The translations under genes were made by a program, and so were the position numbers. Shown here in pieces: positions 51,249-63,570 of a DNA stretch of 64,000 bases. The notes beneath the pieces were generated by a model. It was given only the letters and a program-made list of their open reading frames with translations, was not told the origin of the DNA and did not search any database. The DNA comes from Marinifilum flexuosum (GTDB lineage Bacteria; Bacteroidota; Bacteroidia; Bacteroidales; Marinifilaceae): contig NZ_RAPQ01000011.1 in assembly GCF_003610555.1 (NCBI RefSeq), positions 248,001 through 312,000 on the forward strand, given 5' to 3'. The stretch's first letter is position 1; each line of letters begins with the position of its first letter.

Positions 51249-54200
51249 CTACCAATCCTGCTTTTGCTCTACGTAATCGCTAAAGCTTTCGATTTTAAGA
51301 TCGGCTTCGGACTTTTTGCAGATAGAATAGATGAAGGCAGATGCCAAACGTGCATTGGTTACCAATGGAACGTTTAAGTCGATGGCAGTACGTCTGATTT
51401 GGTAATCGTTGTTCAGCTCATCCTTGCTTAAGTTCTTTGGAATATTTACAACCAAATCAACCTTACGATCGCGAATCAAACTTACTGCTGTTTGCTCCTC
51501 GTTTTCATCTGGCCATGCTACGGCTTCAACCGTTACACCATTTTCCTGAAGGAACTTTGCAGTACCTCTTGTTCCGTATAACTTATAGCCACGCTCTTCC
51601 AGCATCTTCGAGCTCTTCAATAGCTCTATCTTCGAGCGAATAGGACCACTACTAATCAACACCGCCTTCTTCGGTACGCGATAACCAACTGATATCATTG
51701 ATTTTAATATTGCATCGTAGTAGTCGGCGCCCAAACAGCCAACTTCACCGGTTGAAGACATGTCTACACCCAATACAGGGTCGGCTTTTGACAGTCTTGA
51801 GAAGGAGAATTGTGATGCTTTTACACCAATATGTTCCAGCTCAAACATTGATGGAAGATTGTTTGGAATCGGTACATCCAACATGGCCTGAGTTGCCGTT
51901 TCTACGAAATTATAGTCCATTACTTTCGATACAAATGGGAAACTACGGCTGGCACGAAGGTTACACTCGATTACCTTAATGTCGTTGTCTTTTGCCAACA
52001 ACTGCATGTTGAATGGTCCAGTAATGTTCAATGATTTTGCAATCTTACGCGCAATCTTTCTGATTCTGCGTATGGTTTCGAAGTACAATTTCTGTGGTGG
52101 GAACACCAGGGTTGCATCTCCAGAGTGAACCCCTGCAAACTCAACGTGTTCAGAAATGGCATCAATCACAATTTCACCATTCTTGGCAACTCCGTCGAAC
52201 TCAATCTCTTTGGCTTCCTGAATAAACTCACTCACAACTACCGGATACTGCTTAGAAACCTGTGCAGCCAAATCAAGGAAGTGTTCCAACTCCTCGCGGT
52301 TCGATACCACGTTCATGGCAGCTCCTGAAAGCACGTAACTCGGACGAATTAATACAGGGAATCCCACTTCATCAATAAACTCGTGAATGGCTCCAATACT
52401 GGTCAACTCGCTCCATCGTGGCTGATCAACTCCCAATTCATCCAACATGGCCGAGAAAGTCTGACGATTCTCTGCTCTGTCAATCGATTCAGGAGAAGTA
52501 CCCAATACATTCACATCAGCATTATGAAGACGCATTGCCAGGTTCTGTGGAATCTGTCCACCAACCGATACAATCACTCCTCTTGGCGATTCCAAATCGA
52601 TGATATCCAACACTCTTTCGAAGGAAAGTTCGTCAAAGTACAATCTGTCGCAAACATCGTAATCGGTACTTACCGTTTCCGGATTGTAATTGATCATTAC
52701 CGAACGTAAACCTTCTTTGTTTACTGCATTCAGGGCATTTACACTACACCAGTCGAACTCTACCGATGAACCAATACGATATGCTCCCGATCCCAACACA
52801 ATAACTGATTTGTTATCGGATACATAGTCGATGTCATTTTCATCGCCACTATAAGTCAAATAAATGTAGTTGGTTTGTGCAGGATACTCCGCTGCAAGGG
52901 TATCAATTTGCTTCACAACCGGAACAATTCCCTTCTCTTTACGATGCTTTCTTACTGCCAACAATTCGGCTTCCATATTGGTATTTTCCGGCTTCAGAAC
53001 GAATCTTGCCAACTGGAAATCCGAGAATCCATATACTTTAGCTGCTTTAAGCAATTCATCAGGTAAAGTCTGTAAGTTACTATGCTTTTGCAGATCCCAC
53101 TTAATCTTAGTGATGTGCTCTAACTTGCTTAGGAACCATTTGTCGATCTTGGTTAGGTCGTGTACCTGATCGATGCTGTAGCCCTGTTCGAATGCCTGTG
53201 CAATGGAGAAAATACGCATATCGGTTGGATGCGTAAGCTCCTTCTCTACATCTTCGAACTTGGAGTGTACATTCCCAACAAATCCGTGCATTCCCTGTCC
53301 AATCATACGCAAACCTTTCTGTATGGCTTCCTCGAAGTTACGACCAATGGCCATTACCTCACCAACCGACTTCATACTCGATCCGATCTCTTTGGTCACA
53401 CCTTCGAATTTGTTCAAATCCCAACGAGGAATCTTACAAACTACATAGTCAAGCGCTGGCTCGAAACATGCAGTTGTGGTTTGTGTTACCGCATTCTTTA
53501 GCTCATGTAGTGCATAGCCTAAACCAAGCTTGGCAGCTACAAATGCCAATGGATAACCCGTTGCTTTCGATGCCAGTGCCGATGATCTCGACAGACGTGC
53601 ATTCACCTCGATCACACGGTAATCTTCTGATTCAGGATCCAGTGCATACTGTACGTTACACTCTCCCACAACGCCCATGTGACGGATAATCTTAATGGCC
53701 AAAGCTCTTAACTTGTGATACTCCGAGTTGGTAAGTGTTTGAGATGGTGCAATTACAATACTTTCCCCGGTATGGATTCCCAGTGGATCGAAGTTTTCCA
53801 TATTACAAACCGTAATACAGTTGTCGTAAGCATCACGTACCACCTCATATTCTACCTCTTTCCAGCCTTTCAGCGACTCTTCAACCAAAATCTGGCTAGA
53901 GTAGGATAAAGCGTTCTCAGCAAGCTTTTTCAGCTCATCCATATTGGAACAGAAACCTGAACCTTGTCCTCCCAAGGTAAAGGCTGCACGCACAATAATC
54001 GGGAAACCTAATTTCTCTGCTGCATCCAATGCCCCTTGCACCGATTCTACAGCATAAGATTGAGGCGTTTTTACATCGATTTTGCGCAATTCGTTGGCAA
54101 AAATCTCTCTGTCCTCGGTTTTGATAATGGCTTCGATTGGTGTACCCAATACCTTTAGGTTGTACTTTTCAAGAATTCCTGATTCGAAAAGTTCTACCCC

Positions 54201-54500
54201 GCAGTTCAGCGCAGTTTGTCCTCCAAAAGCTAAAAGAATACCATCAGGTTTTTCCTTTAAGATTACTTGTTCCACAAAAAAGGGAGTAACCGGCAAAAAA
54301 TAAATTTGATCGGCAACTCCCTTGGAAGTTTGTACGGTTGCGATATTCGGGTTAATCAATACGGTGTAAATACCTTCCTCTTTCATGGCTTTTAATGCCT
54401 GCGATCCGGAATAGTCAAATTCACCAGCTTCACCAATTTTCAGGGCTCCTGAACCTAATACGAGTACTTTCTTTATTTTATCTTTAATCATTTCTGTCAT
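51249..54500 (-). CDS. carB: Carbamoyl-phosphate synthase large subunit CarB, 1083 aa
   Basis: Makes carbamoyl phosphate from bicarbonate, glutamine-derived ammonia and two ATP, feeding arginine and pyrimidines. Two homologous ATP-grasp halves: GSGALKIGEAGEFDYSGSQA (~16-35) with LAFGGQTALNCGVELF, and GSGAYRIGSSVEFDWCS (~565) with VIVSVGGQIPQNLAMRL; oligomerisation helix between; an allosteric MGS-like domain at the C-terminus (KAVLISSGPIRSKIELLKSS). Full length. Last gene of the arginine operon, after carA. Confidence 0.97.
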   Translation of the reverse strand: MTEMIKDKIKKVLVLGSGALKIGEAGEFDYSGSQALKAMKEEGIYTVLINPNIATVQTSKGVADQIYFLPVTPFFVEQVILKEKPDGILLAFGGQTALNCGVELFESGILEKYNLKVLGTPIEAIIKTEDREIFANELRKIDVKTPQSYAVESVQGALDAAEKLGFPIIVRAAFTLGGQGSGFCSNMDELKKLAENALSYSSQILVEESLKGWKEVEYEVVRDAYDNCITVCNMENFDPLGIHTGESIVIAPSQTLTNSEYHKLRALAIKIIRHMGVVGECNVQYALDPESEDYRVIEVNARLSRSSALASKATGYPLAFVAAKLGLGYALHELKNAVTQTTTACFEPALDYVVCKIPRWDLNKFEGVTKEIGSSMKSVGEVMAIGRNFEEAIQKGLRMIGQGMHGFVGNVHSKFEDVEKELTHPTDMRIFSIAQAFEQGYSIDQVHDLTKIDKWFLSKLEHITKIKWDLQKHSNLQTLPDELLKAAKVYGFSDFQLARFVLKPENTNMEAELLAVRKHRKEKGIVPVVKQIDTLAAEYPAQTNYIYLTYSGDENDIDYVSDNKSVIVLGSGAYRIGSSVEFDWCSVNALNAVNKEGLRSVMINYNPETVSTDYDVCDRLYFDELSFERVLDIIDLESPRGVIVSVGGQIPQNLAMRLHNADVNVLGTSPESIDRAENRQTFSAMLDELGVDQPRWSELTSIGAIHEFIDEVGFPVLIRPSYVLSGAAMNVVSNREELEHFLDLAAQVSKQYPVVVSEFIQEAKEIEFDGVAKNGEIVIDAISEHVEFAGVHSGDATLVFPPQKLYFETIRRIRKIARKIAKSLNITGPFNMQLLAKDNDIKVIECNLRASRSFPFVSKVMDYNFVETATQAMLDVPIPNNLPSMFELEHIGVKASQFSFSRLSKADPVLGVDMSSTGEVGCLGADYYDAILKSMISVGYRVPKKAVLISSGPIRSKIELLKSSKMLEERGYKLYGTRGTAKFLQENGVTVEAVAWPDENEEQTAVSLIRDRKVDLVVNIPKNLSKDELNNDYQIRRTAIDLNVPLVTNARLASAFIYSICKKSEADLKIESFSDYVEQKQDW

Positions 54501-54565
54501 CTTTTATCCACTAGCTAAAGCTTGTGGCAATTCATCAATTACCTTTTTCCTTTACACTTTTTCCT

Positions 54566-55648
54566 TTACCCTTGATTCTTTTCCATCATTTCAATGAAAT
54601 CATCAAAAAGGAATTCTGTATCAGTTGGACCGCTGGATGCTTCAGGGTGAAACTGAGAAGCGAAAAATGGTTTGCTCACATGCTTGATTCCTTCACAGGT
54701 ATTGTCGTTGGCATTAACGAATAATGGCTTCCACTCTTTCGGTAAAGTATCATTGTTGATTGCATAACCATGGTTCTGAGAGGTAATAAAACAGCGTTTG
54801 GTTCCTTCCAAAACTACAGGCTGATTGTGACTTCTATGTCCGTATTTTAGTTTATAAGTATCAGCTCCGGCAGCCAATGCCATTAACTGAGTTCCCAGAC
54901 AAATTCCCATAATTGGTGTATCCTGCTCAAATGCTTTCTTTAGGTTAGCAATGGCAGCTGTATTTTGCTTCGGATCACCGGGACCATTAGAGATGAATAA
55001 TCCGTCGTATTCTTCCTGGGTAAAGTCATAGTCGTGTGGAACTCGAATGACTGTTGTATCGCGCTTTAAAAGACATCTGATGATGTTGTTCTTTACTCCG
55101 CAATCCAACAATAGTACCTTGTGCTTTCCTTCGCCATAAACTTTCTTCTCTGGTGTGCTAACCTGTGCAACCAAGTTTTCAAGGTTAGGATCTTTCCATT
55201 CAGGTTCATTCTCTTCAAAAACAATTTTAGCCAGCATACTTCCCTGTTCACGAAGTTTTTTGGTCAATGCACGTGTGTCTACACCGTAAACTCCTGGAAT
55301 TTTGTGCTCTTTCATCCAATCTGCAAGACTTAAACTTGCATTCCAGTGACTAAATTCTTCTGTGTAATCCGATACAATAAATGCTGATACCTGAATCTTT
55401 TCTGATTCGTAAAATCGGAACAGATCATCCTCTTGCAATGTTCCCGGAACACCGTAGTTCCCAATCAATGGGAAGGTACTCACCAAAATCTGCCCTTTAT
55501 ACGAAGGGTCAGTCAAACTTTCCGGATAACCGGTCATTGCTGTGTTAAACACCATCTCTCCTGCCACGGAGCCCTCATACCCAAAAGATGTACCGATGTA
55601 CTCTGATCCATCTTGTAAAATTAGTTTTGCTTTTGTCTGTTGTGACAT
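54566..55648 (-). CDS. carA: Carbamoyl-phosphate synthase small subunit CarA, 360 aa
   Basis: Glutaminase subunit. N-terminal domain with LILQDGSEYIGTSFGYEGSV, then the class I amidotransferase: GDPKQNTAAIANLKK, nucleophile GICLGTQLMALAAGADTYKL (~230-249, Cys ~232), GHRSHNQPV and the catalytic pair FHPEASSGP. Feeds ammonia to CarB through a tunnel. Spaced 63 bp from argH. Confidence 0.96.
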   Translation of the reverse strand: MSQQTKAKLILQDGSEYIGTSFGYEGSVAGEMVFNTAMTGYPESLTDPSYKGQILVSTFPLIGNYGVPGTLQEDDLFRFYESEKIQVSAFIVSDYTEEFSHWNASLSLADWMKEHKIPGVYGVDTRALTKKLREQGSMLAKIVFEENEPEWKDPNLENLVAQVSTPEKKVYGEGKHKVLLLDCGVKNNIIRCLLKRDTTVIRVPHDYDFTQEEYDGLFISNGPGDPKQNTAAIANLKKAFEQDTPIMGICLGTQLMALAAGADTYKLKYGHRSHNQPVVLEGTKRCFITSQNHGYAINNDTLPKEWKPLFVNANDNTCEGIKHVSKPFFASQFHPEASSGPTDTEFLFDDFIEMMEKNQG

Positions 55649-55710
55649 AAAAGTTCTATAAAATGGTTATTAAATTCGATTAATAGTTAAATGTGCAGTT
55701 TCTACTACCC

Positions 55711-57048
55711 TTATATTCTATTTAGTAAGTTCATATAAGCCTCCTTGGTCTTGTGGAAATTGAATGCCACGAATGTTTCATTCATTTTGCATACAATTCT
55801 GTCGTTGCATAAATTCCCAAGACTTCCTTCGTGAACATGATTAATTTCGCCCTCGTGCTTAAACGCTCCTTCTTCTACCAATTGTCCTACCTTCTTGTAT
55901 GCATCACGGAAAGGAACCCCGTCCACAACCATCTTGTTCACTTCTTCAACCGTAAACAGATACTGGTAACGCTCGTCATTTAACACTTCTTCGTTTATCT
56001 TCACTTCTGATAGCATGATTCTGGTCATTTCCAGGCATGAAAGCATCTTATCAAACGAAGGCATAAAGAATTCCTTGGTCAGCTGATAATCTCTGTGATA
56101 TCCTGATGGAAGATTAGAAGTTACTGCCTGAATTTGCGCAGGAAGCATTTGCAATGCATTGGCATTTGCTCGAATAACCTCGAATACATCAGGATTCTTC
56201 TTGTGTGGCATGATACTACTACCTGTTGTTAACTCATCAGGAAAACTTAGGAAGTTAAAGTTCTGCGAGTTGTACAAGCATGCATCCATGGCTAGTTTGG
56301 CAATGGTCATGGCCATATTGGCTAGTGCTGATAGAACTGTAAACTCCATCTTTCCACGCCCCATTTGCGCGTATACAACATTGTAGCTAAGGTTATCAAA
56401 ACCTAGCAAATCGGTTGTCATTTGACGATTTAAAGGGAAAGATGAACCGTATCCTGCTCCCGATCCCAATGGATTTTGATTTACTACTTTATATGCTGAT
56501 TGAAGCACCAGTAGGTCGTCCGTTAAACTTTCAGCATATGACCCAAACCACAAACCAAAAGATGATGGCATCGCCACTTGCAAGTGTGTATACCCTGGAA
56601 TCAGGACATCCTTATATGTATTACTTTTTTCAATCAACAAGTCGAATAGTAATCTTGCCTCACGAACGATCTCCTCTAGTTTGTTTCGAGTAAACAGCTT
56701 CAAGTCCAAAAGAACCTGATCATTTCTCGATCTTCCACTGTGTATTTTCTTACCGATATCTCCTAAAGCTTGAGTAAGTAAATATTCAATTTGAGAGTGA
56801 ACATCCTCGATACCGTCCTCAATCACAAAAGCATCGTTTTTAATGGATGAATATATTTTTCTTAGTTCTTCCTGAATTAACTTCAATTCCTTCTTTTCCA
56901 ACAGACCAATAGACTGTAGCATTTCAATGTGAGCAAGTGATCCAAGTACATCAAATGCAGCCAGTTCCAAATCTAATTCACGGTCCATTCCAACCGTAAA
57001 TTGTTCAATCTTCTTATCAACTTGTACGCCTTTATCCCAAAGTTTCAT
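55711..57048 (-). CDS. argH: Argininosuccinate lyase ArgH, 445 aa
   Basis: Cleaves argininosuccinate to arginine and fumarate. Superfamily signatures: DVHSQIEYLL (~85-95), GSGAGYGSSFPLNR (~191-204) and the mobile loop GSSIMPHKKNPDVFE (~274-288, catalytic Ser). VAMPSSFGLWFGSYAESL lies between. Normal length. Confidence 0.96.
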   Translation of the reverse strand: MKLWDKGVQVDKKIEQFTVGMDRELDLELAAFDVLGSLAHIEMLQSIGLLEKKELKLIQEELRKIYSSIKNDAFVIEDGIEDVHSQIEYLLTQALGDIGKKIHSGRSRNDQVLLDLKLFTRNKLEEIVREARLLFDLLIEKSNTYKDVLIPGYTHLQVAMPSSFGLWFGSYAESLTDDLLVLQSAYKVVNQNPLGSGAGYGSSFPLNRQMTTDLLGFDNLSYNVVYAQMGRGKMEFTVLSALANMAMTIAKLAMDACLYNSQNFNFLSFPDELTTGSSIMPHKKNPDVFEVIRANANALQMLPAQIQAVTSNLPSGYHRDYQLTKEFFMPSFDKMLSCLEMTRIMLSEVKINEEVLNDERYQYLFTVEEVNKMVVDGVPFRDAYKKVGQLVEEGAFKHEGEINHVHEGSLGNLCNDRIVCKMNETFVAFNFHKTKEAYMNLLNRI

Positions 57049-57073
57049 ATTCGTGTGATTTAAGTATTTTAGG

Positions 57074-58150
57074 TTATTTATTTGTTGTCAATTTTAATCC
57101 GTTCAACAAGTTATAATATTTTTCGATGCCTTCCCCAATTTCTTTCACATAGATAAACTCATCTGCTGTATGTGATCTTGCTGAATCTCCTGGGCCCAAT
57201 TTTAATGTGGGAAATCCTTTCATTATTGCCTGATCGGATGTGGTTGGAGAGCCATAATAGTCCATTCTTTGCTCTAAACCAGCTTGAATTAATGGGTGTT
57301 CCAAAGGAATACCTGACGAGTTCATTCTGAATGATCTTGCCTTTACATCGCTTTCAACATTCGCTTTAATAATTTCAAAAGCTTTCTCGTTAGAGTAATG
57401 CTCGTTGGTTCTAACATCCACAACATAGGTACATGATGCTGGAATTACATTGTGCTGTTTTCCTGCATTAATCTGCGTTACAGTCATTTTAACCGGCCCA
57501 AGCATTTCTGATTCATTCTCAAACTTAAAAGAATGAAACCATTCGATATCTTTTAAGGCAAGACTTATGGCATTTACACCTTCGTTTCTGGCAGCATGTC
57601 CAGGAACTCCAATGGCTTCACAATCAAGCACCATTAGTCCCTTTTCTGCAATGGCCATTTCCATTAGGGTTGGTTCTCCTACAATGCCAACGTCAATTCT
57701 TCCAATTTCATCCTGAACCAGCTCAAAGCCATTCTTTCCTGATATTTCCTCTTCTGCTGAAGCACAAAATACTCTATTGTACTCTTGCTCGGTCTCATCC
57801 AGTGCCATGAAAGTTGCCATTAGTGATACCAAACAACCTCCTGCATCATTACTTCCCAATCCGTAAAGTTTATCATCTACATCTTCAGGATTGTAAGGAT
57901 CTTTGGTCCACTTTTCGTTTGGCTTTACGGTATCCAAATGAGAATTCATAAGCAAAACTGGTTTACCTTCCTTAAAATTCTTATTGAATATCCATACGTT
58001 ATTGCCTTTTCTGTACACCTTATATCCAAAGTCTGATAGCTTCTTCTCCATCACATCAGCAACAAGGTTTTCCTCTTTACTGAAAGACTGGATCGAAATC
58101 AGCTCTTTTAATGTACTTAGGGCGATATTTGTGTATTTATCTAAATTCAT
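57074..58150 (-). CDS. argE: M20 deacylase of arginine synthesis (ArgE-like), 358 aa
   Basis: M20 metallopeptidase: LLMNSHLDTVKPNEKW (metal His), YGLGSNDAGGCLVSLMA (bridging Asp), ASAEEEISGKNGFE (catalytic Glu) and a late GPGDSARSHTADEF. Start at ATG 58148-58150 (MNLDKYTNIALST); the 58207 reading overlaps argB. In Bacteroidota the pathway often runs through N-succinyl or N-acetyl citrulline, so the true substrate may be the acylated citrulline and not acetylornithine; the sequence does not decide. Confidence 0.88.
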   Translation of the reverse strand: MNLDKYTNIALSTLKELISIQSFSKEENLVADVMEKKLSDFGYKVYRKGNNVWIFNKNFKEGKPVLLMNSHLDTVKPNEKWTKDPYNPEDVDDKLYGLGSNDAGGCLVSLMATFMALDETEQEYNRVFCASAEEEISGKNGFELVQDEIGRIDVGIVGEPTLMEMAIAEKGLMVLDCEAIGVPGHAARNEGVNAISLALKDIEWFHSFKFENESEMLGPVKMTVTQINAGKQHNVIPASCTYVVDVRTNEHYSNEKAFEIIKANVESDVKARSFRMNSSGIPLEHPLIQAGLEQRMDYYGSPTTSDQAIMKGFPTLKLGPGDSARSHTADEFIYVKEIGEGIEKYYNLLNGLKLTTNK

Positions 58151-58157
58151 AGTTCGT

Positions 58158-58934
58158 CTATTGAATAATCTGCGTGCCTGATGAATGATTGCTCTCCATT
58201 GAAACAAAATTACCGATGATTACTTCCTCAACTCCTTTCGATAAAGCATAAAATGCATTTTCAGTTTTTGGCATCATCCCAGTATTAATGACACCATCTT
58301 TTACCATTTGGGCACACTGTTCTGTATTCAAAACCGGCATTACACTACTATCATCATCGGCATCCATTAAGACTCCTAACTTTTCGAAACTGTATACTAG
58401 CTTCACCTTGTAAAAACGGCTTAAAGCAGCAGCAACTTCGGTTGCAATGGTATCTGCGTTGGTGTTTAGCAATTGACCTTTACCGTCATGTGTTATCGGC
58501 GCAATTACCAAAGTAGAGTTGCACTCAATCTGTTTGCACAAAGCCAATGTATTCACTTTCGTGATGTCGCCTACAAAGCCAAAATCAATTGTTGGATGAT
58601 TACGCTTTTCTGCCAGAATTAAATCTTGATCAGCTCCACACATTCCCATCGCATTAACTCCTCTGGCCTGAAGTGATGCCACAATATTCTTGTTCACCAA
58701 TCCAGCATAGACCATGGTTACCAGCTTTAAGTTTTCAGCATCGGTAATTCTTCTGCCATTCACCATTTTGGTTTTCACTCCAAGTTCTCCTGAAAGATCC
58801 GATGCCAGCTTTCCTCCTCCATGTACCAAAACCACTTTGCCACTCAAGTTTGAAAATGCATCCAGAAAGTCATTCAGTTTATCTGGATCATCAATTACGT
58901 TTCCACCAATTTTTACTACTGTTAGTTCGCTCAT
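58158..58934 (-). CDS. argB: Acylglutamate kinase ArgB, 258 aa
   Basis: Phosphorylates N-acylglutamate. VVKIGGNVIDDPDKL (5-19), VLVHGGGKLASDLSGELGVK (~35-54) and TKMVNGRRITDAENLKLV are typical; INTGMMPKTENAFYALSKGV is the nucleotide/substrate lid region. Whether it takes acetyl or succinyl glutamate, as in Bacteroides, is not visible. Confidence 0.93.
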   Translation of the reverse strand: MSELTVVKIGGNVIDDPDKLNDFLDAFSNLSGKVVLVHGGGKLASDLSGELGVKTKMVNGRRITDAENLKLVTMVYAGLVNKNIVASLQARGVNAMGMCGADQDLILAEKRNHPTIDFGFVGDITKVNTLALCKQIECNSTLVIAPITHDGKGQLLNTNADTIATEVAAALSRFYKVKLVYSFEKLGVLMDADDDSSVMPVLNTEQCAQMVKDGVINTGMMPKTENAFYALSKGVEEVIIGNFVSMESNHSSGTQIIQ

Positions 58935-58968
58935 TTCTCTTTACAATTTGGGTTTTTACTAGTTTGTG

Positions 58969-60105
58969 TTAAGCCGCGCAAGTGCTTGCCAATACACAAT
59001 TAAATGCTTCAATGAATTGGTCTGCCTCTTCCTTTGTAATCGAAAGTGGTGGCAACAAACGAAGTGTGTTCTGTCCTGAAGAACCTGTAAATATTCCATG
59101 TTCTTTCAATAGCTTCGTTCTAATTTCCGACATGTTTTTAATGTCGATACCAATCATTAAGCCTTTCCCCCTTATTGCTTTTATCGCTTGGTTTTCTTTT
59201 AATTTATCGATTAAATAATTACCAATTTCTACTGCATTTTCAAGCAGATGCTCTTCTTTAATTGTTTCCAGAACAGCTGTTGCAGCAGCACATGCCAGAT
59301 GATTTCCTCCAAATGTGGTTCCCAACATTCCTTTCCATGCTTTGATTTCTGGTGCTATCAGAACTCCTGCAATTGGAAAACCATTTCCCATTCCTTTTGC
59401 TGTGGTAATGATATCTGGTTTTACATCTGAATACTGGTGTGCAAAAAACTTTCCACTTCTTCCAAAACCCGATTGAATCTCATCCAAAATCAACAGCACA
59501 TCATTCTGTTCGCATGCTGATTTTGTTGCTTTCAAGAAATCGACACTTGGTTCAAATACACCATTAACACCTTGAATTCCTTCTATGATCACCGCTGAAA
59601 CATCACCTTTTTCAAGTTCTTTTACCAGACTCTCCGTATCATTCATTTCAACAAAAATCACATTGTGTTTTGCATTGAATTCTGACGATAATTTTGGATT
59701 GTCAGTAATCGAAAGTGCTCCCCCGGTTCTACCATGAAATGCTCCTTTAATAGAGATTATTTTTGATTTCTGATTGTGGAATGATGCTATTTTCAATGCA
59801 TTCTCATTGGCTTCCGCTCCCGAGTTGCATAGGAATAGCTGGTAATCATCATATTCGCTAAGCTGGCCTAATTTACTGGCCAGCTTATCTTGCAATTCGT
59901 TCTTTACCGCATTGGAATAGAAACCTAAACAATGCAGTTGATTTTCAATCCTAAACATGTAATGTGGATGAGAATGACCTATGGAGATCACTCCATGGCC
60001 GCCATAAAAATCCAGGTATTGATTTCCCTTGTCATCAGAAAGTTTCATGCCTTTTCCGTTAACAAGATTTATATCGTAACAATTATATACGTCGAATAAT
60101 TTCAT
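58969..60105 (-). CDS. argD: Acylornithine aminotransferase ArgD, 378 aa
   Basis: Class III aminotransferase: FYGGHGVISIGHSHP (~30), FLCNSGAEANENALKIASF, AVIIEGIQGVNGV, LILDEIQSGFGRSGKFFAHQ and PLP lysine in ITTAKGMGNGFPIAG (~235). A strong Shine-Dalgarno-like AAGGAGGAAA precedes its start on the minus strand. Transfers an amino group to the acylglutamate semialdehyde made by ArgC. Confidence 0.95.
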   Translation of the reverse strand: MKLFDVYNCYDINLVNGKGMKLSDDKGNQYLDFYGGHGVISIGHSHPHYMFRIENQLHCLGFYSNAVKNELQDKLASKLGQLSEYDDYQLFLCNSGAEANENALKIASFHNQKSKIISIKGAFHGRTGGALSITDNPKLSSEFNAKHNVIFVEMNDTESLVKELEKGDVSAVIIEGIQGVNGVFEPSVDFLKATKSACEQNDVLLILDEIQSGFGRSGKFFAHQYSDVKPDIITTAKGMGNGFPIAGVLIAPEIKAWKGMLGTTFGGNHLACAAATAVLETIKEEHLLENAVEIGNYLIDKLKENQAIKAIRGKGLMIGIDIKNMSEIRTKLLKEHGIFTGSSGQNTLRLLPPLSITKEEADQFIEAFNCVLASTCAA

Positions 60106-60120
60106 CTTTTTTTCCTCCTT

Positions 60121-61086
60121 TTAAAAACCTACAGGTTTTAAGCCTAATCCTTCTTTTTCATTCAATCCAAACATGATGTTCATGTTCTGAACTGCCTGTC
60201 CTGATGCTCCTTTTAATAGATTATCTACGACCGAGATAATCATTAATTTATTTCCATGTTTCTCAAGATATAACACGCATTTATTGGTGTTAACTACTTG
60301 TTTTACATCAGGTGTTACATCAGAAATTGAAACAAAAGGGTGTTCTGAATAATAAGATTGATATTTCTCTTTTGCTTCTTCAATGCTCCACTTGCAATCA
60401 GTATAGATTGTTGCCATGATTCCTCTGCTAAAATTCCCTCTTACCGGAATAAAGTTGATTGCTTTTGAGTAATCAGGCTGCAACTGAAGCATAGATTCAG
60501 TAATTTCAGCCAAATGTTGATGTGTAAAGGCTTTGTAAACTGCTACATTGTTATTCTTCCAGCTAAAATGAGAAGTTACCGTTGGATTTTGTCCTGCTCC
60601 GGTCGATCCTGTTATAGAATTTACATGGATTTCTTCATTTAATTGCTTTTCTTCTGCCAATGGAAGTAAGCCCAATTCAATACAGGTAGCAAAACATCCT
60701 GGATTTGCAATTCTATTAGCCGTTTCAATGCTTTCCTTATTCAATTCTGGCAATCCGTAAACAAAACCACCATTATTGTTTTTAGGTCTGTAATCAGTAC
60801 TTAAATCAATAATATACAAATCATTCGGCAAGTTATTCTGTTCTAAGAAAGCCTTGGTTTTTCCATGGCCCGAACAAATAAATATCACATCAACCACTGA
60901 ATAATCAGCTTCTCCAAAAATTAAATCTGTATCACCAAGTAAATCCTTGTGCACATCAGTAATTGAATGGCCTGCATGGCTTGTACTTTGTACAAAAGCA
61001 ATATTTACAATTGGGTGCCAAACTAATATGCGTAGCAATTCTCCTGCAGTATATCCTGCACCACCTATAATTCCAACATTCACCAT
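60121..61086 (-). CDS. argC: N-acylglutamyl-phosphate reductase ArgC, 321 aa
   Basis: NADPH-binding VGIIGGAGYTAGELLRIL at 4-21, IDLSTDYR (~92) and active-site NPGCFATCIELGLLPLA (Cys ~149). Produces the semialdehyde used by ArgD. One base separates it from argG. Confidence 0.95.
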   Translation of the reverse strand: MVNVGIIGGAGYTAGELLRILVWHPIVNIAFVQSTSHAGHSITDVHKDLLGDTDLIFGEADYSVVDVIFICSGHGKTKAFLEQNNLPNDLYIIDLSTDYRPKNNNGGFVYGLPELNKESIETANRIANPGCFATCIELGLLPLAEEKQLNEEIHVNSITGSTGAGQNPTVTSHFSWKNNNVAVYKAFTHQHLAEITESMLQLQPDYSKAINFIPVRGNFSRGIMATIYTDCKWSIEEAKEKYQSYYSEHPFVSISDVTPDVKQVVNTNKCVLYLEKHGNKLMIISVVDNLLKGASGQAVQNMNIMFGLNEKEGLGLKPVGF

Positions 61087-61087
61087 C

Positions 61088-62287
61088 TTATTGCTTATTT
61101 ACGGTATGATAAATTTGAAGAGAATTTGCAAGGATGTTTGTAAAACCTTTTACATCATCTGCTGTCCAACCTTCATTGCTTTCGCCATATTGACCAAACA
61201 AGTCAGACATCAAATCATTTGGAGATTCAATTCCTTCAACAAGAAACTGTTTTGGGCTCATATTAATGAAAACTGTACCATTCACATTCTTTTGTGAATC
61301 AAGAAGGAAAGTTTCCATATTTCTCATTACTGGCTCCAAATATTGCGCTTCGTGAAGCAACATTCCATAGAAATTGGAAATCTGTTCTTTCCAGTACATT
61401 TGCCACTTTGTTAAAGTGTGCTTTTCCAAAGTCTCATGAGCTTTTATAATCATTAGAGGAGCTGCAGCTTCGAATGCTACTCTACCTTTCGTACCAATAA
61501 TGGTATCACCTACGTGCATGTCTCTTCCGATACCGAAAGCTGCACCAGCGGCTTCTATTTTTTGTATTGCCTCTAAAGCGTGGGCTACCTTTTCGCCATT
61601 AACTGCCACCAATTCACCTTCTTTAAACTCAATGCTTAACTTCTCAGGCTCTGTTTTTTCAACTTGCTTTGGATAAGCTTCCTCAGGCAATGGCTCGCTT
61701 GAAGTTAGCGTCTCTTTTCCTCCAATACTGGTTCCCCAGATTCCAGCATTAATCGAGTACTTCATTTTCTCGAAGTTCGCATTAATACCATGATCTTTCA
61801 AGTACTGAATTTCAGTTTCTCTGCTTAATTCAAGATCTCTGGTTGGAGTAATAATTTCGGCATTTGGAGCCATGATTTTAAAAATCAAATCGAATCGAAT
61901 CTGATCATTTCCAGCTCCCGTGCTACCGTGAGCAATATAATCTGCATTAATGGAATGAGCATATTGAGCAATGGCCATTGCCTGAAATGCTCTCTCTGAG
62001 CTTACTGATAATGGGTATGTATTGTTTTTAAGCACATTCCCCATAATCATGTACTTGATACATTTTTCGTAGTATTCTTTTGTAATATCCAGCGATACGT
62101 GTTCAACAACGCCCAATTGTTTGGTTCTATCTTCAATTTCAGCCAGTTCTTCATCGCTAAAACCACCTGTATTTCCTAATGCTGTGTACACATCCATCCC
62201 CAACTCCTTAGAAAGGTAAAGTGCACAATATGTTGTATCTAATCCGCCGCTATATGCTAATACTACTTTTTTCTTATCTGTTGTCAT
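61088..62287 (-). CDS. argG: Argininosuccinate synthase ArgG, 399 aa
   Basis: ATP-pyrophosphatase P-loop VVLAYSGGLDTTYCALYL at 8-25, then YIAHGSTGAGNDQIRFDL (~116-133) and APNAEIITPTRDLEL. Joins citrulline and aspartate. The central loops (FGIGRDMHVGDTIIGTKGRV) are intact. First long gene after the GNAT. Confidence 0.96.
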   Translation of the reverse strand: MTTDKKKVVLAYSGGLDTTYCALYLSKELGMDVYTALGNTGGFSDEELAEIEDRTKQLGVVEHVSLDITKEYYEKCIKYMIMGNVLKNNTYPLSVSSERAFQAMAIAQYAHSINADYIAHGSTGAGNDQIRFDLIFKIMAPNAEIITPTRDLELSRETEIQYLKDHGINANFEKMKYSINAGIWGTSIGGKETLTSSEPLPEEAYPKQVEKTEPEKLSIEFKEGELVAVNGEKVAHALEAIQKIEAAGAAFGIGRDMHVGDTIIGTKGRVAFEAAAPLMIIKAHETLEKHTLTKWQMYWKEQISNFYGMLLHEAQYLEPVMRNMETFLLDSQKNVNGTVFINMSPKQFLVEGIESPNDLMSDLFGQYGESNEGWTADDVKGFTNILANSLQIYHTVNKQ

Positions 62288-62317: not shown

Positions 62318-62905
62318 TTATTTGCTTTCGTTTGGATTGGGTGTACCATTTTTACTCGGATTGAATAACATCCCTGTACAAAGGCACATTTTCCTATCCG
62401 TTCTTTGCAGAATATCGTAGTTCACACAACTACTACATCCTTTCCAAAATGATTCATCAGCTGTTAATTCTGAGAATGTTACTGGTCTGTAACCCAAATC
62501 CGAATTGATCTTCATTACAGGAAGGCTGGTGGTTAAACCAAAGATTTTAGCTTGAGGATATCGCTTCCTTGACAACTTAAATGCTTCTGCCTTGATTAAT
62601 TTCGCTAATCCTACCGCTCTGTATTCCGGATCAACAATTAAACCTGAATTGGCAACATACTTACCATGTTCCCAGGTTTCTACATAACAGAATCCTATTA
62701 CTTTAAAATCGTCAAAAGCAATGATAGCTTTTCCTTCCTGAATCTTTTGCACTAGGTACAAAGGATTTCTTTTTGCAATTCCGGTACCGCGAATTTTTGC
62801 AGCCCTTTCAATCATATCACAAATTTCTGTCGCATAATCAATATGCCTTAAATCTGCTACAATGACACTTATTTTTTGCTCAACTTCCATTAATGTGTCT
62901 ATCAT
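62318..62905 (-). CDS. GNAT N-acetyltransferase, probable N-acylglutamate synthase, 195 aa
   Basis: First enzyme gene of the arginine operon. GNAT core at ~15-140 with LIVDPEYRAVGLAKLIKAEA (acetyl-CoA P-loop region), preceded by IAFDDFKVIGFCYVE. The C-terminal ~50 residues carry four cysteines (WKGCSSCVNYD and MCLCTGMLF), unusual for a GNAT and possibly a metal site. The position, and the absence of another acylglutamate synthase in the operon, make it the likely ArgA functional equivalent; that is inference. Start 62905, or the inner ATG at 62888-62890 (MEVEQKISV). Confidence 0.85.
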   Translation of the reverse strand: MIDTLMEVEQKISVIVADLRHIDYATEICDMIERAAKIRGTGIAKRNPLYLVQKIQEGKAIIAFDDFKVIGFCYVETWEHGKYVANSGLIVDPEYRAVGLAKLIKAEAFKLSRKRYPQAKIFGLTTSLPVMKINSDLGYRPVTFSELTADESFWKGCSSCVNYDILQRTDRKMCLCTGMLFNPSKNGTPNPNESK

Positions 62906-62915
62906 TTGTTAGTCT

Positions 62916-63056
62916 CTAGGTTTCCCAAAATAATGCTACACCAGTAAGGCATAACCACTTGTTATTAATATCAATAAAGAATGTTTCTTTTAGTTTGCTG
63001 TTGTTTAAATTCCGAAACCATCGTCGTCGGAATTCTAAGGAGTTGTTTCTAATCAT
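62916..63056 (-). CDS. Arginine leader peptide 4, 46 aa
   Basis: MIRNNSLEFRRRWFRNL and 29 more residues, ending TAG 10 bases before the GNAT start. It has CGA CGA CGA at residues 10-12 and further Arg (AGA at 3, CGG at 15). The three CGA codons lie in the loop of a stem AATTCCGA / TCGGAATT (63008-63036) with no T-run, so this last unit may act on translation of the GNAT. Confidence 0.7.
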   Translation of the reverse strand: MIRNNSLEFRRRWFRNLNNSKLKETFFIDINNKWLCLTGVALFWET

Positions 63057-63071
63057 CTTATTTTGTTTTAA

Positions 63072-63224
63072 TTATTTCACACAAAAAAAGCCTACCGCAG
63101 GAACGGTAAGCTTAATACAGTTTATATATATCTGACAATCAGATACAGCAAGCTCATCCGTCCCTCCTGGGTAACAGTTACTTCGCAAATGGCGTCGGCT
63201 TTCTGTATAGATTATACTTTTCAT
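63072..63224 (-). CDS. Arginine leader peptide 3, 50 aa
   Basis: MKSIIYTESRRHLRSNC and on; Arg codons CGA CGC at 10-11 and CGA at 14. The frame continues across terminator 3 (63083-63112). This is the weakest of the four leaders because the run is only RR..R, but it fits the position and codon pattern. Confidence 0.55.
   Translation of the reverse strand: MKSIIYTESRRHLRSNCYPGGTDELAVSDCQIYINCIKLTVPAVGFFCVK
63083..63112 (-). terminator. Attenuator terminator 3
   Basis: AAGCTTACCG / CGGTAGGC stem (one G-U) followed by TTTTTTT on the minus strand. Confidence 0.8.
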
Positions 63225-63261
63225 TTTTATATTCTTTAATTCAATTGCTTTTCAATAGTTC

Positions 63262-63296
63262 AAAAAAAAGGCTTACCGGGAAAAACGGTAAGCCTT
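63262..63296 (-). terminator. Attenuator terminator 2
   Basis: AAGGCTTACCG / CGGTAAGCCTT stem with eight T on the minus strand, just after leader 2. Confidence 0.9.
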
Positions 63297-63313
63297 CTAA
63301 ATATTGTTCTTAA

Positions 63314-63418
63314 TCATTGATTACACGACAACAAGACTAAATCCGCTTTCCCTAAAGGTGCGCTCATTCGTCGTCGTCGGATGTAAAACAATTGAATCAT
63401 TTGGTTTTTCTTATTCAT
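63314..63418 (-). CDS. Arginine leader peptide 2, 34 aa
   Basis: MNKKNQMIQLFYIRRRRMS followed by APLGKADLVLLSCNQ and stop. Four consecutive CGA codons at residues 14-17. An inner ATG at 63398-63400 is an alternative start. Immediately followed by terminator 2. Confidence 0.8.
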   Translation of the reverse strand: MNKKNQMIQLFYIRRRRMSAPLGKADLVLLSCNQ

Positions 63419-63426
63419 TAAATTTC

Positions 63427-63452
63427 AAAAAAAAACTTTCCGAATTGGAAAG
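63427..63452 (-). terminator. Attenuator terminator 1
   Basis: CTTTCC / GGAAAG stem with a five-base loop, followed by nine T on the minus strand; it sits between leaders 1 and 2. Confidence 0.8.
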
Positions 63453-63487
63453 CTTGGAAAAAATCATACCAACACTTGTCCTTATCG

Positions 63488-63538
63488 TTACAATAAAGAT
63501 CTTAAAATGCGTCGTCGAATGATTAATACTTTTTCCAT
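63488..63538 (-). CDS. Arginine leader peptide 1, 16 aa
   Basis: MEKVLIIRRRILRSLL, a compact classical leader: CGA CGA CGC at residues 8-10 and AGA at 13, 4 Arg of 16. It starts about 20 bases after the likely promoter (TATCTTTG) and is followed by terminator 1. Confidence 0.8.
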   Translation of the reverse strand: MEKVLIIRRRILRSLL

Positions 63539-63560
63539 GTTTCTTTTGATTTGTTGGACA

Positions 63561-63568
63561 CAAAGATA
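63561..63568 (-). promoter_or_regulatory. -7 element of the arginine operon promoter
   Basis: TATCTTTG on the minus strand fits TAnnTTTG; no clean TTTG lies at the expected -33 distance. Confidence 0.6.
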
Positions 63569-63570
63569 AG

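What the first reader, a model, noticed from the sequence alone, without database searches (positions are those of the whole stretch)
62906..63570. Four-stage tandem arginine attenuator ahead of the arginine/carAB operon
Seen: on the minus strand, between a TAnnTTTG promoter element and the first enzyme gene, four short ORFs in series carry Arg runs (RRR, RRRR, RR..R, RRR), almost all written with CGA/CGC. The first two are followed by, and the third overlaps, a stem-loop with 7-9 T; the fourth has its CGA codons in the loop of a stem just ahead of the GNAT gene. Known: ribosome-mediated attenuation uses one leader rich in the end-product residue plus a terminator. Inference: a cascade of such units gives graded or fail-safe arginine control. 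I do not know of a published tandem arginine attenuator of this form.
Basis: partly seen in the sequence, partly recalled or inferred. Interest (0 to 1): 0.95.

Follow-up and report, generated by a model that had tools for sequence, protein, structure and literature searches.

The report
Serial arginine attenuators before arg operon
A marine Bacteroidota lineage in which the usual arginine repressor was not found seems to control its arginine-making operon with several short arginine-rich "test" genes in a row, three of them followed by a transcription stop signal; single devices of this kind are classical, a series of them for one signal was not seen in the papers searched here.

Summary
On the minus strand, between one TAnnTTTG element and the GNAT-argG-C-D-B-E-H-carAB operon, lie four ATG-started short ORFs with Arg runs; three hairpin terminators follow the first three. 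None of 5000 dinucleotide shuffles gave four such ORFs. All four ORFs and three terminators are present in 24 of 24 leader-bearing loci (22 genomes of 6 genera, 2 named Labilibaculum records); core Arg residues persist through synonymous changes. Units 1-3 show alternative protector, antiterminator and terminator pairings, unit 2 most weakly. ArgR was found in 0 of 12 leader genomes tested and 14 of 18 examined relatives without the leader, but is missing from other relatives too. The same genome has single his and trp leaders and a double ilv leader, each with terminators. I read units 1-3 as classical ribosome-mediated attenuators in series for one signal. Unit 4 differs: only a weak terminator-like hairpin, no predicted unmasking of the GNAT start, but a C-terminus constrained at protein level that ends in TAG 7-17 nt before GNAT; it may couple translation or be an arrest peptide. 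Nothing was tested at the bench. New variant of a known kind.

The parts
63561..63568 (-).
   Evidence: TAnnTTTG lies 30-32 nt before ORF1 in 23 of 23 loci; within the leader 1 of 23 (L013) has another match
63488..63538 (-). Unit 1 leader ORF, MEKVLIIRRRILRSLL, Arg codons CGA CGA CGC and AGA
   Evidence: present in 23 of 23 loci; the 3 core Arg are invariant in 17 of 17 distinct ORFs
63480..63498 (-). Unit 1 protector hairpin, CTTTATT with GATAAGG
   Evidence: one pair has both sides changed in 7 of 20 sequences
63447..63481 (-). Unit 1 predicted antiterminator, GGACAAGTGTTGG with CCAAGCTTTCC
   Evidence: one search gives little covariation support
63427..63455 (-). Unit 1 intrinsic terminator and T run
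63314..63418 (-). Unit 2 leader ORF with RRRR (CGA x4 at 63379-63368); in-frame ATG at 63400
63327..63375 (-). Unit 2 protector pairing, Arg codons GACGA with TTGTC
   Evidence: five-pair core kept in 19-20 of 20 sequences, without variation
63262..63298 (-). Unit 2 intrinsic terminator and T run
63072..63224 (-). Unit 3 leader ORF with SRRHLRSNCYPGGTDEL core; runs through terminator 3 in this genome
   Evidence: codons 9-24 pN/pS 0.19
63158..63177 (-). Unit 3 protector hairpin, CTGTTACC with GGGACGG
   Evidence: one pair UA to CG in 5 of 20 sequences; 100% of cells paired
63099..63165 (-). Unit 3 predicted antiterminator, AGGGACGGATGAGCTTG with the terminator 5' arm
63083..63113 (-). Unit 3 intrinsic terminator and T run
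62916..63056 (-). Unit 4 leader ORF, 46 aa, RRRWFR plus conserved C-terminal INNKWLCLTGVALFWET; stop TAG; holds a weak terminator-like hairpin at 62955-62935
   Evidence: codons 26-46 pN/pS 0.17; TAG in 23 of 23
62318..62905 (-). First operon gene, GNAT-type acetyltransferase
   Evidence: one weak N-acetyltransferase match, 21.8 bits against a cut-off of 154
51249..62287 (-). argG, argC, argD, argB, argE-like, argH, carA, carB
   Evidence: argC, argB, argH, carA, carB above an NCBIfam cut-off; argG, argD and the ArgE/DapE match below it

Best explanation
The leader is a serial, ribosome-mediated transcription attenuator for arginine, standing where relatives have the ArgR repressor. One transcript from the TAnnTTTG promoter carries three complete attenuator units. 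When charged tRNA-Arg of the isoacceptor that reads CGA and CGC is plentiful, the ribosome runs past the Arg codons, the antiterminator strand is covered or sequestered, and RNA polymerase stops at the terminator. When it is scarce, the ribosome stalls on the CGA/CGC run, the antiterminator captures the 5' arm of the terminator, and transcription goes on to the next unit. Full expression needs readthrough at all three, so the response should be steeper and the basal level lower than with one unit. The fourth Arg-run ORF ends 7-17 nt before GNAT and most likely tunes that gene's translation, by coupling or by a stalled ribosome. Shown here: the anatomy, its conservation, alternative pairings by prediction and alignment, no ArgR by profile search. 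Inferred: leader translation, stalling, termination, the multiplicative response, and the role of unit 4.
For: Four Arg ORFs, none of 5000 shuffles reaching four. 22 of 56 family genomes hold unit 3; all four ORFs and three terminators are in 24 of 24 leader-bearing loci examined. Core Arg residues persist through codon changes. Distance from the last Arg to the terminator is nearly fixed in unit 2 (63-71 nt) and unit 3 (62-70 nt), less so in unit 1 (32-46 nt). With a ribosome placed on the Arg codons the mean probability that the terminator 5' arm pairs upstream is 0.85, 0.68 and 0.95 in units 1-3, against 0.48, 0.45 and 0.52 for shuffled spacers, 23 loci. Protector hairpins have one pair with both sides changed in 7 of 20 (unit 1) and 5 of 20 (unit 3) sequences. 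The unit 3 antiterminator has 91.3% of cells paired against 37-55% when slid. ArgR: 0 of 12 leader genomes, 14 of 18 examined relatives without the leader. The same genome has one His-rich, one Trp-rich and two Ile/Val/Leu-rich leaders with terminators. 80 tRNA places, typed, include tRNA-Arg ACG x4, TCT x2, CCT x1, CCG x1 and no TCG, so CGA and CGC would share one isoacceptor; CGA is 11 of 16 leader Arg codons against 15% in window genes.
Against: No expression data. Unit 2's antiterminator is weak alone: in the median genome 15% of shuffles do as well. Unit 1's antiterminator pairs no better than column shuffles (101 of 500 as high). Two-sided changes are few and may be one or two events. 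In unit 3 the antiterminator is favoured without any ribosome as well (0.73-0.99), and in 4 of 14 loci, this genome included, ORF3 extends through its own terminator. In unit 1 capture did not rise on stalling in 1 of 14 loci (L033). The loci are kin, so counts are not independent and the ArgR difference may be one event; ArgR was also not found in 18 of the 45 other genomes (those that are not leader genomes), so its absence is not peculiar to leader genomes. 6 further GNAT genomes (4 with ArgR) were not checked for a leader. 34 of 56 family genomes have no unit 3 match, among them one of the same genus (G004, 80% complete, no GNAT match either). Only 150 of 500 tRNA candidates were scored, so a missed tRNA is possible.
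Confidence: 0.82

Rival explanations
1. Only some units work (for example units 1 and 3); the others are decaying duplicates or plain terminators, so the device is in effect a single or double attenuator.
For: Unit 2's antiterminator is weak against shuffles. ORF3 runs through terminator 3 in this genome. The terminators of units 2 and 3 resemble each other (1 of 300 shuffles as high), which fits duplication.
Against: All four Arg runs and three terminators are kept in 24 of 24 leader-bearing loci of 6 genera. The Arg core of units 1 and 3 has no nonsynonymous change among distinct ORFs; unit 2 has a few.
Confidence: 0.12
2. Unit 4 acts by translational coupling only: ribosomes ending at the ORF4 TAG restart at GNAT 7-17 nt downstream, and the Arg run throttles this.
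For: Stop-to-start gap of 7-17 nt in 23 of 23 loci. PMC4833913 (passages) reports that leader genes peak at 11-14 bp from the next gene in Bacteroidetes.
Against: Coupling alone does not need a conserved C-terminal peptide (pN/pS 0.17), and it would lower GNAT in arginine starvation, the opposite of what a biosynthetic gene needs (inference).
Confidence: 0.35
3. The short ORFs make functional small proteins and the Arg runs are incidental.
For: Protein-level constraint in ORF3 codons 9-24 and ORF4 codons 26-46.
Against: ORF1 and ORF2 outside the Arg run are less constrained (pN/pS 0.39-0.77). Three of the four Arg runs sit ahead of a terminator with alternative pairings. Profiles of ORF3 and ORF4 match once in this genome and, among the other 246 genomes of an order sample, only with E of 0.001-0.007 in 2 and 3 genomes.
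Confidence: 0.05
4. The CGACGACGA core is a DNA or RNA protein-binding site, not a codon run.
For: Near-identical CGACGACG cores in units 1, 2 and 4 of this genome.
Against: The core changes synonymously while Arg stays: unit 4 Arg12 is CGA 6, CGC 10, AGG 5 of 21 distinct ORFs. In unit 3 the run is broken as RRHLR. No Rfam family at gathering score in 19 loci, L003 among them; one search gave 8 sub-gathering matches in the window stretch, two of them to the Phe leader family over units 1 and 2.
Confidence: 0.03

Closest known systems
Classical amino-acid leader-peptide attenuators, trp and his type (described in PMC3641672 section 11 and PMC9413887 passages)
   Same: Short ORF rich in the end-product codon, terminator, alternative antiterminator, before the operon that makes that amino acid
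   Different: Described there as one unit per leader; here three units plus a fourth Arg ORF in series for one amino acid, arginine
Salmonella mgtCBR tandem attenuators (PMC3641672, abstract and section 11 read)
   Same: Two leader ORFs on one transcript, each affecting transcription
   Different: Two different signals (ATP, proline) and no intrinsic terminators; here one signal repeated, with intrinsic terminators
BT_4401 5' UTR of Bacteroides thetaiotaomicron (PMC7366714, passages)
   Same: Same phylum; a 462-nt 5' UTR with several putative short ORFs (sORF_378 to -381), in a passage on sORFs reminiscent of attenuating leader peptides
   Different: Gene of unknown function, no amino acid named in the passages, ORFs not validated there
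Leader-peptide attenuation in Flavobacterium psychrophilum (PMC9723704, passages)
   Same: Same phylum; leader-peptide clues upstream of amino-acid biosynthesis operons
   Different: The passages name no arginine leader and no serial arrangement; its supplements were not open to me
Salmonella speF orf34 (PMC6386406, abstract)
   Same: Consecutive Arg codons sense arginine by ribosome pausing
   Different: One ORF with two Arg codons; acts through Rho, translation and RNase G; controls polyamine synthesis
Tandem riboswitches and double T-boxes (PMC9413887 passages; metE leader as told in PMC3641672)
   Same: Serial cis-acting sensors on one leader
   Different: Sensing by aptamer or tRNA binding, not by leader translation
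Fungal arginine attenuator peptide (recalled; only named in listings)
   Same: For unit 4: an arginine-linked short ORF before an arginine or carbamoyl-phosphate gene, with constraint at peptide level
   Different: Eukaryotic; stalls with excess arginine; no such stalling is shown here

Membership tests
Ribosome-mediated amino-acid transcription attenuator (units 1-3) | Short ORF with a run of the regulated amino acid | tested here: met
   in 24 of 24 leader-bearing loci
Ribosome-mediated amino-acid transcription attenuator (units 1-3) | Intrinsic terminator downstream of each leader ORF | tested here: met
   three terminators in 24 of 24 loci; in 4 of 14 loci ORF3 runs through the third
Ribosome-mediated amino-acid transcription attenuator (units 1 and 3) | Antiterminator exclusive with the terminator, favoured when the ribosome stalls at the key codons | tested here: met
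   by prediction; limits: unit 3 is favoured without a ribosome too, unit 1 has little covariation support
Ribosome-mediated amino-acid transcription attenuator (unit 2) | Antiterminator exclusive with the terminator, favoured when the ribosome stalls at the key codons | tested here: inconclusive
   capture rises on stalling in 14 of 14 loci; median 15% of shuffles as high
Ribosome-mediated amino-acid transcription attenuator | Controlled operon makes the sensed amino acid | tested here: met
   argG, C, D, B, E-like, H, carA, carB
Ribosome-mediated amino-acid transcription attenuator | Leader translated; stalling and termination respond to amino-acid supply | not testable with these tools
   needs RNA and ribosome data
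Ribosome-mediated transcription attenuator (unit 4) | Terminator controlled by the leader ORF | tested here: inconclusive
   A terminator-like site is listed at 62955-62935 and in some relatives (L005, L008; L137); the hairpin is weak (-3.4 to -9.3 kcal/mol) with a variable U run and no consensus fold of note
Translational attenuator (unit 4) | Stalling unmasks the start of the next gene | tested here: not met
   mean unpaired probability around the GNAT start 0.53 without and 0.52 with a stalled ribosome, 23 loci
Arrest peptide (unit 4, AAP or TnaC logic) | Peptide-level conservation up to a stall site near the regulated start | tested here: met
   codons 26-46 pN/pS 0.17, TAG in 23 of 23 loci
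Arrest peptide (unit 4, AAP or TnaC logic) | Ligand-dependent stalling | not testable with these tools
   needs toeprinting
Riboswitch or T-box | Match to a known RNA family | tested here: not met
   no match at gathering score in 19 loci, L003 among them; 8 matches in the window stretch, all below gathering

The most novel reading that the evidence does not exclude
Arginine is sensed twice on one leader by two principles: by tRNA charging at three serial transcription attenuators, and by the nascent ORF4 peptide, whose conserved C-terminus arrests the ribosome at the TAG when arginine is plentiful and so covers the GNAT start 7-17 nt downstream. This would be a bacterial counterpart of the fungal arginine attenuator peptide.
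Probability: 0.15. Interest if true: 0.9.

Novelty: new variant of a known kind. Interest (0 to 1): 0.72.

Why it matters
Serial attenuators for one signal would be a repressor-free way to build a steep, low-leak switch out of RNA and translation alone. The lineage makes it testable: most examined relatives without the leader have ArgR (14 of 18), and the ilv leader has two units in this lineage but at most one Ile/Val/Leu-rich ORF in three outgroups. Whether repeating an attenuator multiplies the dynamic range could be measured by deleting units one at a time.

Tried and rejected
Duplication of units: local alignment among the four units of this genome gave a clear signal only for the terminators of units 2 and 3 (1 of 300 shuffles as high). 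The unit 1/unit 2 hit was the overlap of my own windows and was discarded; the unit 1/unit 4 hit (9 of 300) looked like A-rich start context.

A strict Arg-ORF-plus-terminator test found units in 2 of those 80, both Labilibaculum. Arg-rich short ORFs before GNAT occur in other loci (which printed ORFs only for loci under 48% G+C), but without terminators by my criteria; left as a lead.

Wider peptide search: apart from this genome, ORF3 and ORF4 profiles gave 2 and 3 weak matches (E 0.001-0.007) in a sample of 247 genomes of the order, taken as chance and not opened. In the 34 family genomes without an ORF3 match I did not search for units 1, 2 and 4, apart from the 18 GNAT loci read (13 of them in the same family), which do not show the four-unit leader; 2 of the 18 had under 600 nt upstream (L016, L024), and a few had single Arg-rich ORFs (for example L028).

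Unit 4 accessibility: the first run worked for 10 of 23 loci, because the others were cut short; one search repeated it on 23 with the same answer.

ArgR was sought only with PF02863 (found in 8 of 14 control genomes, Bacteroides ihuae among them); a diverged repressor could be missed. The second match of the leader in the own genome (G000:C1, 37 bases) looked like an A+T-rich chance match and was left.

Literature: nine searches showed no serial single-signal leader-peptide attenuator and no arginine-rich leader before a bacterial arg operon in the listings, abstracts and passages seen. Listings were partial where hits were many (30 of 81, 15 of 490). The library holds open-licence papers only. 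The nearest to an exception is PMC4997734 (passages): a carA leader peptide in Pseudomonas aeruginosa, with attenuation linked to pyrimidines.

Full report
What is there. The window lies on G000:C4 of a 5.17 Mb genome in 16 contigs. Relatives with the same leader include two Labilibaculum records, a genus that NCBI places in Marinifilaceae; the window's own genus is not named by any search. The minus strand carries GNAT, argG, argC, argD, argB, an argE-like gene, argH, carA and carB. Ahead of GNAT lie four short Arg-run ORFs and three terminators. 11 of 16 Arg codons are CGA, although CGA is 15% and AGA 45% of Arg codons in 41 window ORFs of 200 aa or more. Four ATG-ORFs with 3 Arg in 5 residues never arose in 5000 dinucleotide shuffles. 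A TAnnTTTG element lies 30-32 nt before ORF1 in 23 of 23 loci, and 22 of 23 have no second one inside the leader, so the units most likely sit on one transcript.

Conservation. GNAT relatives were found in 36 of 57 related genomes. DNA was held for 30 of the 36; 12 of these show the four-unit leader and 18 do not (two of the 18 had under 600 nt upstream). L033 and L034 show it too. A profile of ORF3 matched 22 of 56 family genomes, of 6 genera: the same 12 and 10 more, and those 10 all have four units and three terminators. That makes 24 of 24 leader-bearing loci. L010 equals L009 in these units and was dropped later, leaving 23. Among distinct ORFs the core Arg residues are invariant in unit 1 (17 of 17) and unit 3 (19 of 19); unit 2 has a few replacements; unit 4 keeps Arg12 in 21 of 21 with three codons. 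The distance from the last Arg to the terminator is 63-71 nt in unit 2, 62-70 in unit 3 and 32-46 in unit 1 (14 loci).

Switching. Each unit was folded with a ribosome on Arg codons, at the stop, or nowhere (14 loci). In unit 2, capture of the terminator 5' arm rises from 0.00-0.42 to 0.57-0.82 on stalling, in 14 of 14 loci. In unit 1 it rises in 13 of 14 and exceeds the at-stop value in 14 of 14. In unit 3 it is high with a stalled ribosome (0.81-0.99) and without any ribosome (0.73-0.99), and a ribosome at the stop would cover it. Against shuffled spacers the observed capture exceeds the shuffle mean in 23 of 23 loci for each unit; in the median locus 5%, 15% and 0% of 60 shuffles do as well for units 1, 2 and 3. 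Alignments: the unit 1 protector hairpin has one pair changed on both sides in 7 of 20 sequences, the unit 3 protector in 5 of 20; the unit 3 antiterminator keeps 91.3% of cells paired. Against this, the unit 1 antiterminator is no better than column shuffles on cells paired (101 of 500 as high), the unit 2 antiterminator is modest (84.4% paired), and the two-sided changes may be one or two events.

Regulator context. ArgR (PF02863) was found in 27 of 57 genomes and in none of the 12 four-unit genomes. Of the 18 relatives whose DNA showed no such leader, 14 have it; Fisher p = 2e-5 without correction for kinship. Six more GNAT genomes, 4 with ArgR, were not checked for a leader. ArgR was also not found in 18 of the 45 genomes that are not leader genomes, so absence alone does not predict the leader. 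The four-unit genomes may be one clade and the difference one event; I built no tree.

Internal controls. In the same genome hisG is preceded by MKFIALHHRHHHFTYPQVS and a terminator, trpE by a leader with WWWH and a terminator, and ilvD by two Ile/Val/Leu-rich leaders, each followed by its own terminator. Of 12 further four-unit genomes, 11 show both ilv ORFs and 12 both terminators; in the twelfth (L182) one ORF passed my filter. Of 4 outgroup genomes asked, 3 gave an ilvD locus: one has one such ORF with a terminator after it (L187), one has one such ORF with a terminator-like site found only ahead of its Ile/Val run (L188), one a terminator only (L189). So this lineage uses leader-peptide attenuation at several operons and repeats units at two.

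Codon choice. 80 tRNA places were found, from 150 scored of 500 candidates, and ARAGORN on fetched stretches gives tRNA-Arg ACG x4, TCT x2, CCT x1, CCG x1, none with TCG. CGA and CGC would then be read by the ACG isoacceptor, presumably as inosine; that CGA is a slow codon for it is recalled. Using CGA rather than the common AGA would make the leader sense that isoacceptor.

Unit 4. Its last 21 codons have pN/pS 0.17, the ten before them 0.77; ORF3 codons 9-24 have 0.19. The stop is TAG in 23 of 23 loci, 7-17 nt before GNAT, and stalling does not change the predicted exposure of the GNAT start. A weak terminator-like hairpin sits in the C-terminal codons (-3.4 to -9.3 kcal/mol over 23 loci with a variable U run), and the consensus fold is near zero energy (-0.44 kcal/mol). 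Coupling, a weak terminator, or a peptide that arrests at the stop and covers the GNAT start all fit; none is shown.

Literature. [quoted passage not shown] abstract and section 11 read). In the same phylum, leader-peptide clues for amino-acid operons are reported in F. psychrophilum (PMC9723704, passages), and a B. thetaiotaomicron 5' UTR with several putative sORFs is mentioned (PMC7366714, passages). Tandem terminators in some rimP leaders appear in PMC2965389 (passages). PMC8274638 (listing and start of abstract) reports two leader peptides for ermB. The nine searches named in Tried and rejected showed no serial arginine attenuator in what was listed or read.

Verdict. The feature is real and conserved, and three serial arginine attenuators are the best reading. 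The fourth ORF is a different and open question.

Noticed in passing
L142, about 1001-1303 (G000:C1, upstream of ilvD): Two Ile/Val/Leu-rich leader ORFs in series, each followed by a terminator; both ORFs kept in 11 of 12 further four-unit genomes, at most one in three outgroup loci.
   Followed up: partly
L141 about 1173-1306; reverse complement of L143 about 1286-1428: Single His-rich and Trp-rich leader ORFs, each with a terminator, before hisG and trpE of the same genome.
   Followed up: partly
L056, L090, L101, L103, L104; L074, L080, L084, L088; L048, L052, L060: upstream of GNAT: One or two Arg-rich short ORFs before GNAT in Flavobacteriaceae, Cytophagales-type and Balneolaceae records (groupings partly recalled) without my crude ArgR motif in the DNA held; no terminator by my criteria. 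May be another form of arginine leader.
   Followed up: partly
L076, L090, L101, L103, L104, about 20-120 nt upstream of the GNAT match: A shared hairpin-like element of the type GGAACTTAGGTGAGTCCGGTTCC (variants differ) soon after the Arg-rich ORF; no Rfam match at gathering score.
   Followed up: partly
window 63224-63072: ORF3 runs through its own terminator in this genome and in L004, L006 and L008, 4 of 14 loci; in the other 10 it ends between 2 nt inside and 11 nt before the hairpin.
   Followed up: no
window 63200-63153 and 62981-62919: ORF3 centre (SRRHLRSNCYPGGTDE) and ORF4 C-terminus are constrained at protein level more than the other non-Arg parts of the leader peptides.
   Followed up: partly
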